A DNA stretch of 34,191 bases from Acidobacteriota bacterium (lineage in GTDB: Bacteria > Acidobacteriota > Thermoanaerobaculia > Multivoradales > J023). Shown one piece after another: positions 1,722 through 3,707 of this stretch; positions within the stretch are counted from its first letter, which is position 1; each line of letters starts with the position of its first letter. The notes beneath the pieces were generated by a model, which had not been told where the DNA came from, did not search any database, and saw only the letters and a list, made by a program, of their open reading frames with translations. The translations under genes and the position numbers were made by a program. Where the stretch lies: positions 1 to 34,191 of the forward strand of contig JAJCXO010000213.1 in NCBI GenBank assembly GCA_029263395.1. Direction: 5' to 3'.

Positions 1722-2864
1722 TCATGTGATTCTCTTGCTTCTCTTGAGACAGCAACCGCCGGGGCCGATGCGGGCCTCAATGGTTTGGCGGGTTCTTATC
1801 GTGAGGTCGTCCGTCAGTGTGCGCATTCTGGCCGCATCCATCCACAGAGAGAGCGCGGCTATTGACTCCGTGTCGGCAGCCAGCAATCTGAATAGCCTGT
1901 AGGTTGCAGTAGCGAGAATCTCAAGCTTGGACCACTCCCCGTTGTGATGGTAGATTGCCCCCAGATCAAGCGAAACCAGAGCGATCTCAAACGGTAGGCG
2001 TAGCGCCTGGAATCCTTCCAAAGCAACCTTAAATGCTTTCTCGGCTCGGCTGTGGGTACCTATCTTGGCCCACAACAGCCCCTCGACCCACAGCAGACGA
2101 TACCGCGCCACGCTTCGCCGTCCGCCTTTGACTTCGGCCCGTGCTTTGCGAAGGTACGCAAAAAACAAATTAAAGTCAGCCGAGTTCACGTGCGCTTGAT
2201 CGTTGATCGACTGTGCAAGGTTGTGACAGATCGACCGATGCAATCGTTGGTCAGCCGCTGACCCTTTGTCGGGATTACCGGCCATCGTCAGAGCTTCGCC
2301 GAAACAATCGCCAGCCTCAGAGAATCTCTCGACAGTAGCGAGTGCGTAACCCCTGGCGATGAGAGCGCGTGCCCTAGCTTTGTTGTCGTCCACAGTGCGT
2401 AGTAGTTCAACAGCGACGTCGGCCAGAGCTAGCGCCTCATCGTGCTTCTTTTGGCATGCCCGTAGCGTCGACAGTCGCCGGTAGTAGTCCACCTGGACTA
2501 GCGACGGGATCGATTCGGATTCGATTAGGCGCAGCGCGTGTTCGTAGGTCCGGTCTGAATTGGTGTGCTCGCTGGCCGCTCTATATGCCGAGCCCAGGAC
2601 CACCCAGGCCAACACAAGCCGGCTATGGTGCTCCTGGCACCCCTTTAGGCCCGCGGTCTTCGGTACGGCTAGCGCTAGGGTTGGGGCAATCTTGGCCCAT
2701 TTGAGTGCCTTCTGTGGATCGTTATAGATCTGGTTGTCGAGATCCTGGAGAAAGAATCGCATAAATGTGGCGTCTGCATAAGTCCCAATGCGACTGAGCA
2801 CAACGCTGGGATCGGCTGGCAATTCCCGCCATAGTCTTCTTGCCCATTCCTCCTTATGTGCCAT
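1722..2864 (-). CDS. TPR-repeat protein, no recognised output domain
   Basis: About 380 residues, almost all helical and built of TPR-like pairs. The clearest are GSAYRAASEHTNSDRTYEHA, ARALIARGYALATVERFSEA, AEKAFKVALEGFQALRLP and VSLDLGAIYHHNGEWSKL. I see no signal peptide, no membrane segment, no HTH and no kinase or CHAT domain. I prefer the ATG at 2864 because GAGGG lies eight bases upstream; an in-frame ATG at 2879 would add five residues but has no ribosome site. The gene stands alone on the minus strand. A terminator and a 19-codon ORF lie just upstream and two palindromes abut the start. Size and architecture recall peptide-binding TPR regulators of the Rap/RRNPP type, but that is analogy only; a generic scaffold is equally possible. 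Codon use looks less G+C-biased than in the neighbours. Confidence 0.8.
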   Translation of the reverse strand: MAHKEEWARRLWRELPADPSVVLSRIGTYADATFMRFFLQDLDNQIYNDPQKALKWAKIAPTLALAVPKTAGLKGCQEHHSRLVLAWVVLGSAYRAASEHTNSDRTYEHALRLIESESIPSLVQVDYYRRLSTLRACQKKHDEALALADVAVELLRTVDDNKARARALIARGYALATVERFSEAGDCFGEALTMAGNPDKGSAADQRLHRSICHNLAQSINDQAHVNSADFNLFFAYLRKARAEVKGGRRSVARYRLLWVEGLLWAKIGTHSRAEKAFKVALEGFQALRLPFEIALVSLDLGAIYHHNGEWSKLEILATATYRLFRLLAADTESIAALSLWMDAARMRTLTDDLTIRTRQTIEARIGPGGCCLKRSKRIT

Positions 2865-2880
2865 TACGTCATCCCTCATT

Positions 2881-2899
2881 GTTGAGTCAACTTGATCAA
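2881..2899. promoter_or_regulatory. Adjacent palindromes in the TPR gene leader
   Basis: GTTGAGTCAAC (2881-2891, 5+1+5) is followed directly by TTGATCAA (2892-2899, perfect 8-base palindrome). They lie between the upstream terminator and the start of the TPR gene, touching its alternative ATG. This is a reasonable operator or RNA-structure candidate; no binding protein can be named. Confidence 0.35.
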
Positions 2900-2908
2900 A
2901 AGTAGCAC

Positions 2909-2936
2909 AAAAGAGGCGAGCTTTTTCAAGCTCGCC
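2909..2936 (-). terminator. Rho-independent terminator between short ORF and TPR gene
   Basis: On the minus strand GGCGAGCTT-GAAA-AAGCTCGCC forms a perfect 9-bp stem closed by a GAAA tetraloop and is followed by TCTTTT. The tail lies only on the minus-strand side, so it ends transcripts coming from the short ORF at 2951-3010, about 14 bases after its stop and before the TPR gene. It could be a simple terminator or an attenuator for the TPR gene. Confidence 0.8.
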
Positions 2937-2950
2937 CAGGTCAACAGACC

Positions 2951-3010
2951 TCAGCCTTCGGGCACGATGTAAGGGCCGTGGCCAGATCTAACCAACGTTT
3001 TTACAGTCAT
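2951..3010 (-). CDS. Candidate 19-residue peptide (MTVKTLVRSGHGPYIVPEG)
   Basis: This short ORF starts at ATG 3010 and stops at TGA 2951-2953. AAAGGAG lies eight bases upstream of the ATG, one of the best ribosome sites in the window. An intrinsic terminator begins about 14 bases after the stop, so start, stop and terminator form a compact unit. The peptide has a basic N-terminal half (K4, R8) and a Gly/Pro-rich end (GHGPYIVPEG). It is too short for family assignment. It could be a leader peptide governing the terminator, a signalling peptide for the TPR protein downstream, or a chance ORF in a decayed element. Evidence is purely from layout; expression is unproven. Confidence 0.45.
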   Translation of the reverse strand: MTVKTLVRSGHGPYIVPEG

Positions 3011-3071
3011 TTAACGCACTCCTTTGCTCCAGCGACTCTCAGCGGTATTGCCGGATCGCCCCCATAGACTC

Positions 3072-3095
3072 CCACACCGTAAAACGACAATTCGA
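3072..3095. repeat. 24-base direct repeat, copy 1
   Basis: This copy begins CCACACCGTAAAACGACAAT and ends TCGA. It matches the copy at 3176-3199 at 23 of 24 positions; only T/G at position 9 differs. The start-to-start distance is 104 bases. See the matching copy for interpretation. Confidence 0.8.
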
Positions 3096-3175
3096 CCGAC
3101 CAGGCAGTAGGTAAACCGCAAACGCACAGATCCCCTGGCAGATCAGACCTTCGTGATCCTCAGGAGATCCACTCG

Positions 3176-3223
3176 CCACACCGGAAAACGACAATTCGAG
3201 AGAACCCAAAGAATGTCGAATTG
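3176..3223. repeat. 24-base direct repeat, copy 2, plus inverted copy of its core
   Basis: Copy 2 is 3176-3199 (starts CCACACCGGAAAACGACAAT). Its last eight bases CAATTCGA (3192-3199) recur inverted as TCGAATTG at 3216-3223 with a 16-base spacer, giving a perfect 8-bp inverted repeat. The arrangement could be an operator for the flanking genes or the remains of an insertion-sequence end; IS21-family ends carry several repeats of this general kind. No transposase is visible nearby. Confidence 0.6.
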
Positions 3224-3257: not shown

Positions 3258-3707
3258 GTGCTCATGAGAAGCAGAACACCACTGGAACCGCTCGCCTTGC
3301 TCGAGGCGGTTGCCAGCGACCACCCGACACAGCTGCGCTATCTCCTCGGCGTCATCCTGTCGAGCCCAGAACAAGTCCGCTTGCGCGAGGTTGCAAGCCG
3401 CTGGGGTGTCGATGGCTTTCAGCTTGCCGACGTCATCATCGATGCGGTCTCCCAGCTCGATACATACCAGCGGCGCGGCTGCTGGCAGCCGACGAACGGC
3501 CCAGTCTTGCCGCTGTTACAGCTCGCGCAACTCCGCATCGAGCGGACCAGCATCAGAGCGCGGCGTGTACGCCTCGAGCGACTTGCGAGAAAGCTCATGA
3601 ACCTACACCAACTCGAGACAGCTCGACTGACCGTCAATCGATGGCTAGGAACTAGACCGCTCGCTCTCTCATCAGCGGCGAAGGGGATCCCAGACAATGC
3701 GGCTTAG
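3258..3707 (+). CDS. Hypothetical protein, helical, unrecognised
   Basis: A 149-codon ORF from GTG 3258; an in-frame ATG at 3264 is the other plausible start, and neither has a well-spaced Shine-Dalgarno. Third codon positions are strongly G/C, like the confirmed genes, which argues for real coding. The protein appears mostly alpha-helical and amphipathic (LALLEAVASDHPTQLRYLLG, REVASRWGVDGFQLADVIID). Arg/Leu-rich helices follow (RIERTSIRARRVRLERLARK). It has no signal peptide, no membrane segment and no motif I recognise. Its stop codon overlaps the start of the next gene by one base, so the pair is probably co-translated. It lies downstream of the 24-base repeats and the CAATTCGA inverted repeat, which may control it. 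Confidence 0.6.
   Translation: MLMRSRTPLEPLALLEAVASDHPTQLRYLLGVILSSPEQVRLREVASRWGVDGFQLADVIIDAVSQLDTYQRRGCWQPTNGPVLPLLQLAQLRIERTSIRARRVRLERLARKLMNLHQLETARLTVNRWLGTRPLALSSAAKGIPDNAA

What the first reader, a model, noticed from the sequence alone, without database searches (positions are those of the whole stretch)
1722..3010. Short peptide, terminator and TPR protein: a candidate peptide-receptor or attenuation unit
Seen: a 19-codon ORF with AAAGGAG eight bases upstream, then an intrinsic terminator (9-bp stem, GAAA loop, TCTTTT), then two adjacent palindromes and a TPR-only protein gene, all on the minus strand. Known: TPR proteins such as Rap/PlcR bind short peptides encoded beside them. 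Inference: the peptide may be the TPR ligand, or its translation may decide read-through into the TPR gene. The TPR protein has no HTH, unlike most RRNPP regulators, so a direct copy of that system is not claimed.
Basis: partly seen in the sequence, partly recalled or inferred. Interest (0 to 1): 0.68.

Follow-up and report, generated by a model that had tools for sequence, protein, structure and literature searches.

The report
Acidobacterial peptide and TPR-receptor signalling pairs
A 19-amino-acid peptide gene and its neighbouring TPR-protein gene are one copy of a repeated family of peptide/TPR gene pairs in uncultured Acidobacteriota, and they look like an undescribed peptide-signalling system in a Gram-negative phylum.

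Summary
In this genome and a same-genus one, many related TPR genes have their own short peptide gene with a like ending, G-P-x-[IVL]-x-P-x-G-stop. I count 27: 14 in front of a TPR gene, 12 convergent with one, 1 orphan. Third codon positions are saturated while positions 1 and 2 are held, so the translated peptide is selected. The convergent pairs speak against a general attenuation role. Across the order, longer precursors ending in G-x-x-[ILM]-D-P-x-G, many with a signal-like N terminus, lie beside TPR genes (strict post-hoc motif: 21 near, 0 far). Nine of 13 co-directional promoters examined share a palindrome core; its exact form TACCGATCGGTA occurs three times in 10.7 Mb, each time before such a peptide gene. 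The modelled receptor resembles peptide-binding TPR proteins, Rap and NprR among them. Best reading: peptide ligand plus cytoplasmic TPR receptor, working like RRNPP systems but not filed as a member. Binding, export and output are inferred. New variant of a known kind.

The parts
2951..3010 (-). 19-aa peptide gene, MTVKTLVRSGHGPYIVPEG, stop included
   Evidence: family alignments; profile searches; codon constraint
3019..3025 (-). Shine-Dalgarno AAAGGAG of the peptide gene, 8 bases before ATG
   Evidence: read directly; an SD-like motif precedes the 19-aa start in 15 of 16 19-mers
2914..2937 (-). intrinsic-terminator-like hairpin between peptide and TPR gene
   Evidence: a hairpin after the peptide stop stands out in 20 of 27 peptide genes
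1722..2879 (-). TPR-only protein gene (385 aa), proposed peptide receptor
   Evidence: AF2 model mean pLDDT 91.7; fold matches
3258..3707 (+). divergent gene 'Div' (149 aa), helical, recurrent partner of these units, function unknown
   Evidence: homologs at 8 other loci of the two genomes (three copies in one of them) plus two weak ones; no Pfam or NCBIfam match; no close fold
3093..3104 (-). degenerate half-site CCTGGTCGGTCG at the position (about -94) where relatives carry a TACCGATCGGTA-like palindrome
   Evidence: read; palindrome core at 91-100 nt before the peptide start in 9 of 13 co-directional loci examined; genome count
3072..3094 (-). direct repeat copy CGAATTGTCGTTTTACGGTGTGG in the promoter region
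   Evidence: read; similar sequence before the TPR paralog L002
3176..3198 (-). second copy of that direct repeat, CGAATTGTCGTTTTCCGGTGTGG
   Evidence: read
2881..2899 (-). two adjacent small palindromes before the TPR gene; probably incidental
   Evidence: read; not seen in the paralogs read

Best explanation
The unit is a peptide/receptor pair. A short gene makes a peptide whose C-terminal motif G-P-x-[IVL]-x-P-x-G, ending at the free carboxylate, is the signal. The neighbouring TPR protein is its cytoplasmic receptor, and binding would change what the TPR solenoid does to a partner (a DNA-binding protein, a sigma factor or the divergent gene's product). Shown by computation: translation-level conservation of the peptide, its linkage to TPR genes in two orientations, a recurrent hairpin behind the peptide gene, signal-like N termini and repeats in relatives, a shared promoter palindrome in part of the units, a TPR solenoid model. 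Inferred: separate transcription, binding, export and re-import, the partner and the target genes. The window's own peptide has no signal sequence, so it may leave by an unidentified transporter or act inside the cell.
For: Own genome: of 13 TPR places at E<=1e-10, 8 have a motif peptide beside them and 1 a variant; same-genus G001: 7 of 10. A peptide profile (A2, 11 rows) found 12 loci at E<=0.1 in these two genomes that were not used to build it; 11 of 12 lie beside a TPR gene. In 148 genomes of the class only these two have hits at E<=0.01. Codon divergence of sixteen 19-mers at positions 1/2/3 is 0.40/0.32/0.71, flanks 0.70-0.74 at all positions; the six found by reading upstream of TPR paralogs give 0.42/0.31/0.72. 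Order-wide, 60 stretches with TPR genes from 23 genomes: loose motif 27 near TPR, 4 far; strict motif, chosen after that, 21 near (199,837 b) and 0 far (192,106 b), p 1e-6. 20 of 30 candidate precursors of 40 aa or more have a strongly hydrophobic N-terminal segment. TACCGATCGGTA: 3 sites in 10.68 Mb, all 3 before such peptide genes. Peptide and TPR identities correlate (Mantel r 0.49, p 0.002, n 10). Conserved polar residues: 6 in 126 A-helix positions, 2 in 112 B-helix positions. Fold matches include RapI, Rap with Phr* and NprR. Six OppA-like binding proteins.
Against: No binding, expression or export data. The closest TPR paralog L002 (49% identity) has no recognisable peptide, nor do three more of the 13 places in G000 and three of 10 in G001. 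In the order sample 36 of 60 stretches have no motif peptide near TPR even with the loose motif. Of 14 homologous TPR loci in other orders, 12 have no match and 2 one chance-looking match each (L269; L275, whose 24-aa ORF ends GPSFFPAG about 0.8 kb away). The window's peptide lacks a signal sequence. The best fold matches are generic or eukaryotic TPR proteins (LGN, Z 19.7) ahead of RapI (18.2). The Mantel correlation can come from shared descent. OppA-like proteins occur in 11 of 14 control genomes too, so they say little. No TPR gene was detected on the short contig of one 19-mer (L100).
Confidence: 0.7

Rival explanations
1. Leader-peptide attenuator: translation of the short ORF decides read-through of the terminator into the TPR gene.
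For: In the window and 13 other units the order is peptide then TPR on one strand, and in those printed a hairpin lies close behind the peptide stop codon.
Against: In 12 of 26 pairs the peptide gene is convergent with TPR, four of them with the same 19-aa type (L067, L068, L099, L101). Third codon positions are free, no run of one codon is seen, and the conserved part is the amino-acid C terminus; relatives carry signal-like sequences and repeats. Alternative antiterminator folds were not tested.
Confidence: 0.1
2. The peptide is an intracellular ligand or inhibitor of its TPR partner, not a cell-cell signal (a narrower form that overlaps with the best explanation).
For: None of the 19-mers has a signal-sequence layout by my reading; 14 of 16 have low hydropathy, while L072 and L108 reach 2.3 because they are V- and A-rich. 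A 19-mer needs no processing to expose its C-terminal motif.
Against: Units L112 and L076, with the same TPR family and palindrome, have a 64-70 aa precursor with a signal-like N terminus and a like C terminus, and 20 of 30 longer precursors look exported.
Confidence: 0.2
3. The peptides are precursors of a modified natural product or antimicrobial, and the TPR protein is its regulator or immunity factor.
For: Repeated motif units in several precursors (L116, L117, L129, L142, L143, L155); Acidobacteriota lineages can be rich in biosynthetic clusters (PMC13083261, passages seen).
Against: No maturation enzyme was noticed to recur in the maps of 12 co-directional units (read by eye; only ten neighbour proteins of six loci were put to Pfam); no NCBIfam family for 15 precursors tested beyond two sub-threshold, unrelated matches.
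Confidence: 0.08
4. Chance short ORFs beside an abundant TPR family.
For: TPR genes are numerous in these genomes and short ORFs are common.
Against: Codon-position pattern, profile specificity, near/far linkage.
Confidence: 0.02

Closest known systems
RRNPP(A) quorum sensing of Firmicutes (Rap-Phr, NprR-NprX, PlcR-PapR, AimR-AimP)
   Same: Adjacent small peptide gene and TPR receptor of 250-500 aa; receptors with and without DNA-binding parts; signal-like precursors and tandem repeats in relatives; two copies beside conjugation genes (L073, L074).
   Different: Acidobacteriota, not Firmicutes; a different, shared C-terminal motif G-P-x-x-x-P-x-G; the 19-aa form lacks a signal sequence; relatives pair with sigma-70-like genes and zinc-finger-like N termini (the latter my reading); a divergent orphan gene recurs; binding untested.
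PatS/HetN peptide inhibition of HetR in cyanobacteria (recalled, no call)
   Same: Very short peptide of a Gram-negative with the activity in its C terminus.
   Different: HetR is not a TPR protein; no sequence relation tested.
TPR recognition of peptide C termini (carboxylate clamp, recalled; APPBP2 with RxxGP degron)
   Same: A TPR solenoid reading a conserved peptide end; APPBP2 is among the fold matches.
   Different: Eukaryotic, and its ligand is part of a protein; resemblance of fold only.
Leader-peptide attenuation units (recalled)
   Same: Short ORF with SD, then terminator, then gene.
   Different: Convergent copies, free third codon positions, no run of regulatory codons.

Membership tests
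RRNPP(A) quorum-sensing systems | small propeptide gene (10-100 aa) directly beside the receptor gene | tested here: met
   19 aa, 71 bases before the TPR ORF; criterion from passages of PMC10075063
RRNPP(A) quorum-sensing systems | receptor of 250-500 aa with TPRs | tested here: met
   385 aa, TPR_12 above cut-off; TPR solenoid model
RRNPP(A) quorum-sensing systems | propeptide exported by Sec (signal sequence) | tested here: not met
   Window peptide: highest 12-residue hydropathy 0.32 (no SignalP available). L112, L076 and 18 others have a strong hydrophobic segment. PptAB-type export is not excluded.
RRNPP(A) quorum-sensing systems | receptor homologous to known RRNPPA receptors | tested here: inconclusive
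   Profile of 14 receptors hits Rap105 E 7.5e-7 and NprR 6e-5, but designed, eukaryotic and AfsR TPR proteins score as well or higher; fold: RapI Z 18.2, rmsd 5.3, 307 aligned, beside LGN 19.7
RRNPP(A) quorum-sensing systems | peptide binds receptor and changes its activity | not testable with these tools
   needs experiment
RRNPP(A) quorum-sensing systems | described range: Firmicutes and their mobile elements | tested here: not met
leader-peptide attenuator | short ORF in the 5' leader of the regulated gene | tested here: not met
   met in the window and 13 other units, not met in 12 of 26 pairs, which are convergent
leader-peptide attenuator | conserved regulatory codons or codon choice | tested here: not met
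   third-position divergence 0.71, as in flanks
leader-peptide attenuator | alternative terminator/antiterminator folds | not tested
   only hairpin stability behind the stop was computed
RiPP precursor | maturation enzymes encoded nearby | tested here: inconclusive
   none noticed in the gene maps of 12 loci; Pfam run on ten neighbours only

The most novel reading that the evidence does not exclude
An order of Acidobacteriota runs a many-channel peptide communication system of its own: in one genus a dozen or more TPR receptors per genome, each with a private peptide ending in G-P-x-x-x-P-x-G, wired to sigma-like, XRE-like or orphan partners and in part carried by conjugative elements; a Gram-negative counterpart of RRNPP that arose separately.
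Probability: 0.4. Interest if true: 0.92.

Novelty: new variant of a known kind. Interest (0 to 1): 0.8.

Why it matters
Intracellular peptide signalling through TPR receptors is described for Firmicutes (PMC10075063 and PMC9765709, passages seen). A family of this plan in a Gram-negative, mostly uncultured phylum would widen where such communication exists, give short testable ligands for a large set of unexplained TPR proteins, and raise the question of how such peptides cross two membranes. In the listings of my library searches I saw no paper that describes it; most subscription papers and all bioRxiv preprints are not held.

Tried and rejected
Attenuation as the general role: not supported because of convergent pairs and free third codon positions. 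The two palindromes before TPR as a conserved operator: not seen in the paralogs read. Div as the DNA-binding factor for the palindrome: not supported, since L109 has the palindrome but no Div hit; the Div model's best Foldseek match in the PDB has E 0.3 and its best VIA-align Z is 6.0. The 11-mer ACCGATCGGTA is not specific: 15 distinct sites in G000 and 11 in G001, of which 4 and 2 lie at such peptide genes; its reversed control has 1 and 3 matches. Only the 12-mer is confined (G000). Known RNA families at gathering threshold and tRNAs in the window: none. TPR protein on plasmid records: no match. Genome-contig scan with A5: 129 pattern matches, none confirmed. Peptide-profile hits C156 and C164 (E 0.47 and 5.3) and two in G018 have no TPR gene near: taken as chance.

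Rows dropped before counts: one further L117 ORF ending GAAILPSGD was left out of the 27 as spurious, and the two long precursors of other genera (L082, L084) are not among the 27. The four far matches of the loose motif look spurious, as do some near ones (for example in L138 and L147), hence the strict form, which is therefore post hoc. The 55 ORFs hold spurious ones: L067 second, L128 and L163 second (under 40 aa), L082 first and L122 second (over 40 aa, so among the 30); its script chose starts by hydropathy, so L100, L101, L099 and L115 appear there longer than. In one search the upstream control used the 14 loci with 60 bases available.

Selection: the 60 stretches are part of the matches listed, taken mostly in order of E-value, with G000, G001, G003, G004 and G006 handled apart. 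In one search, 13 of the 14 co-directional loci were examined (L079 was left out), and 4 convergent ones, two of them with under 60 bases upstream. The Mantel test used 10 of the 11 co-directional 19-mers (L111 left out because its TPR gene is frameshifted).

Full report
What is there. The window is contig C213 of a 10.68-Mb, 291-contig genome.

Paralogs carry their own peptide. Searching the genome with the TPR protein gave 29 places at E<=1. Reading upstream of the best ones showed further short ORFs of the same plan: MHVTTAVRSGHGPGIIPSG (L003), MQVHTNVVAGLGAAVVPIG (L004), MLVKTALQSGAGPGVTPIG (L005), MLVSTAVRAGSGPSLIPSG (L007/L017, whose TPR gene is frameshifted), MHVQTSVIAGHGPLMDPEG (L013). 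With the window's these six are 19 aa long with invariant M1, V3, T5, G10, G12, P17, G19. L008 has a 64-aa precursor with a signal-like N terminus and the ending GPVIYPTG; L016, L018, L020 and L011 have longer or multi-copy ORFs with the ending, convergent with TPR genes. Of the 13 own-genome TPR places at E<=1e-10, 8 have such a peptide, one (L009) has a variant inside a longer ORF, and 4 have none, among them the closest paralog L002.

Independent finding by the peptide. A profile of 11 peptide ends (A2) was searched against the own genome and a set of 59 genomes, the own one included. At E<=0.1 it hit G000 15 times, the same-genus G001 9 times and G018 twice; the other 56 had none. Class-wide, 2 of 148 genomes have hits at E<=0.01, again G000 and G001. 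Setting aside rows used to build the profile and repeats within one precursor, 12 new loci remain in the two genomes (3 and 9), and 11 of them lie beside a TPR gene; the exception is L100 on a 4-kb contig, where no TPR gene was detected. In all I have 27 motif peptides in these two genomes: 14 in front of a TPR gene on the same strand, 12 convergent with one, 1 orphan.

The peptide looks translated and selected. Over sixteen 19-mers the pairwise divergence at codon positions 1, 2, 3 is 0.40, 0.32, 0.71; 60 bases up- and downstream give 0.70-0.74 at every position. These sixteen were partly found by motif, so I repeated it on the six found by reading upstream of TPR paralogs: 0.42, 0.31, 0.72 overall, and 0.45, 0.34, 0.71 in codons 2-11, outside the C-terminal motif. 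Four closer pairs show 7/5, 6/4, 7/6 and 4/6 synonymous/non-synonymous codon differences, too few for a formal rate test. SD-like motifs precede 15 of 16 of the 19-mers. A hairpin behind the stop stands out in 20 of 27 (z below -1.5) against 36 of 264 control windows.

Not a leader in general. Twelve of 26 pairs are convergent, including four with the 19-aa type (L067, L068, L099, L101), so there the peptide cannot be a leader of the TPR message. In the window, read-through control remains possible.

Promoter element. At 91-100 nt before the peptide start, 9 of 13 co-directional loci examined carry a palindrome with the core CCGNNCGG. The exact form TACCGATCGGTA occurs three times in the whole genome, each time upstream of such a peptide gene (L003, L005, L008), and the reversed control pattern is absent. 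The window has only a half-site at that position, and L073, L098 and L114 have no site of this form. The shorter 11-mer is not specific. A divergent gene, 149 aa in the window, recurs at 8 other loci of the two genomes, with two weak further matches; it has no Pfam or NCBIfam match and no close fold.

Wider family. I fetched 60 stretches with TPR genes from 23 other genomes of the order. With a loose motif within 8 residues of the ORF end, 27 ORFs lie within 800 bases of a TPR gene and 4 beyond, in 24 of 60 stretches. With the stricter G[PAS]x[ILVMFA][DE]PxG, chosen after that look, it is 21 and 0 over nearly equal lengths. Many precursors look exported, for example those of L122, L135, L142, L143, L145 and L155: 20 of 30 candidate ORFs of at least 40 aa have a strongly hydrophobic N-terminal segment by hydropathy (SignalP was not available). 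Eight hold two to four copies of the motif. Neighbours include sigma-70-like proteins (Pfam, L145 and L129; homologs of the L145 protein in 21 of 100 loci; 'ECF' is my label) and XRE-like proteins (homologs of two queries in 11 and 9 loci; Pfam supports them only weakly). Many of these TPR proteins begin with an H-x3-C-x2-C-like segment (consensus), which I read as a zinc-binding anti-sigma-like domain; no call names it. Of 14 homologous TPR loci in other orders of the class, 12 have no match to looser patterns and two have one chance-looking match each, L275's ORF ending GPSFFPAG about 0.8 kb from TPR.

Receptor. The AF2 model (14 sequences) has mean pLDDT 91.7 and pTM 0.88. Leading fold matches are TPR proteins: LGN Z 19.7, RapI 18.2, Rap with CSF 17.9, NprR 16.7; a shared TPR fold does not prove function. 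By sequence the receptor profile hits designed TPR proteins best, with Rap105 at 7.5e-7 and NprR at 6e-5 further down. Among 14 receptors, polar residues conserved in at least 85% are R100, R135, R212, N220, W264 and W346 on the A helices and Y112 and E195 on the B helices (the A/B assignment is mine from the DSSP helices). Peptide and receptor identities correlate (Mantel r 0.49, p 0.002, n 10; without L013/L087 r 0.51, p 0.016, n 8), as expected for pairs, though shared descent alone can do this. The genome has six OppA-like binding proteins, and 11 of 14 control genomes have at least one, so import is possible but this is not specific.

Mobile context. Two G001 units lie beside conjugation-type genes: an S26-type peptidase and a coupling protein in L073, a coupling protein and a ParA-like ATPase in L074. 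This recalls RRNPP control of conjugation. Ten of the window's neighbours to the right were run against Pfam and include transport, cell-wall and metabolic genes, no mobile ones.

Mechanism. Most likely the peptide's free C terminus is read by the TPR groove, and the loaded or empty receptor acts on a partner that controls the palindrome promoter or the divergent gene. Shown by computation: linkage, selection, hairpin, palindrome in part of the units, fold. Inferred: binding, export, import, partner, output. It works like RRNPP, but I do not file it there: the window's peptide has no signal sequence, the host is not a Firmicute, and receptor homology is inconclusive.

Literature. PMC10075063 and PMC9765709 (passages seen) treat such systems in Firmicutes; of PMC13083261 I saw passages. 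Of all other papers I saw search listings only. The listings showed no paper describing peptide/TPR signalling in Acidobacteriota.

Noticed in passing
window 3258-3707 +, and L106, L108, L111, L112, L072, L074, L076, L107: Recurrent divergent orphan gene family of about 150-180 aa, helical, without Pfam, NCBIfam or close PDB fold match; three copies in a row in L072.
   Followed up: partly
L143, L155, L142, L129, L173, L160: ORFs beside TPR genes carrying tandem repeats such as GAGMDPDG; all but L160 (not tested) have a signal-like N terminus.
   Followed up: partly
L145 2107-2634 +, L129 4240-4803 -: Sigma-70-like (ECF-sized) genes directly beside TPR and peptide genes; homologs of the first in 21 of 100 loci.
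   Followed up: partly
L073 4008-5499, L074 2-1027 and 4608-5264: Two peptide/TPR units of the same-genus genome lie beside conjugation or partition genes.
   Followed up: partly
L114 4423-4893 + and L098 1952-2422 +: An XRE-like gene (my reading) convergent with the TPR gene is conserved between the two genomes.
   Followed up: no
window 3176-3198 and 3072-3094: Direct repeat of 23 bases in the promoter region, with a similar sequence before the peptide-less paralog L002.
   Followed up: no
window 1722-1772 (TPR C terminus): Several of these TPR proteins end in a tail like RIGPGGCC or APGSC, of low model confidence in the window's protein, reminiscent of the peptide's GP motif; meaning unknown.
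   Followed up: no
L014 889-1490: Repeats of GGTGAGGA-like units beside a TPR gene fragment near a contig end.
   Followed up: no
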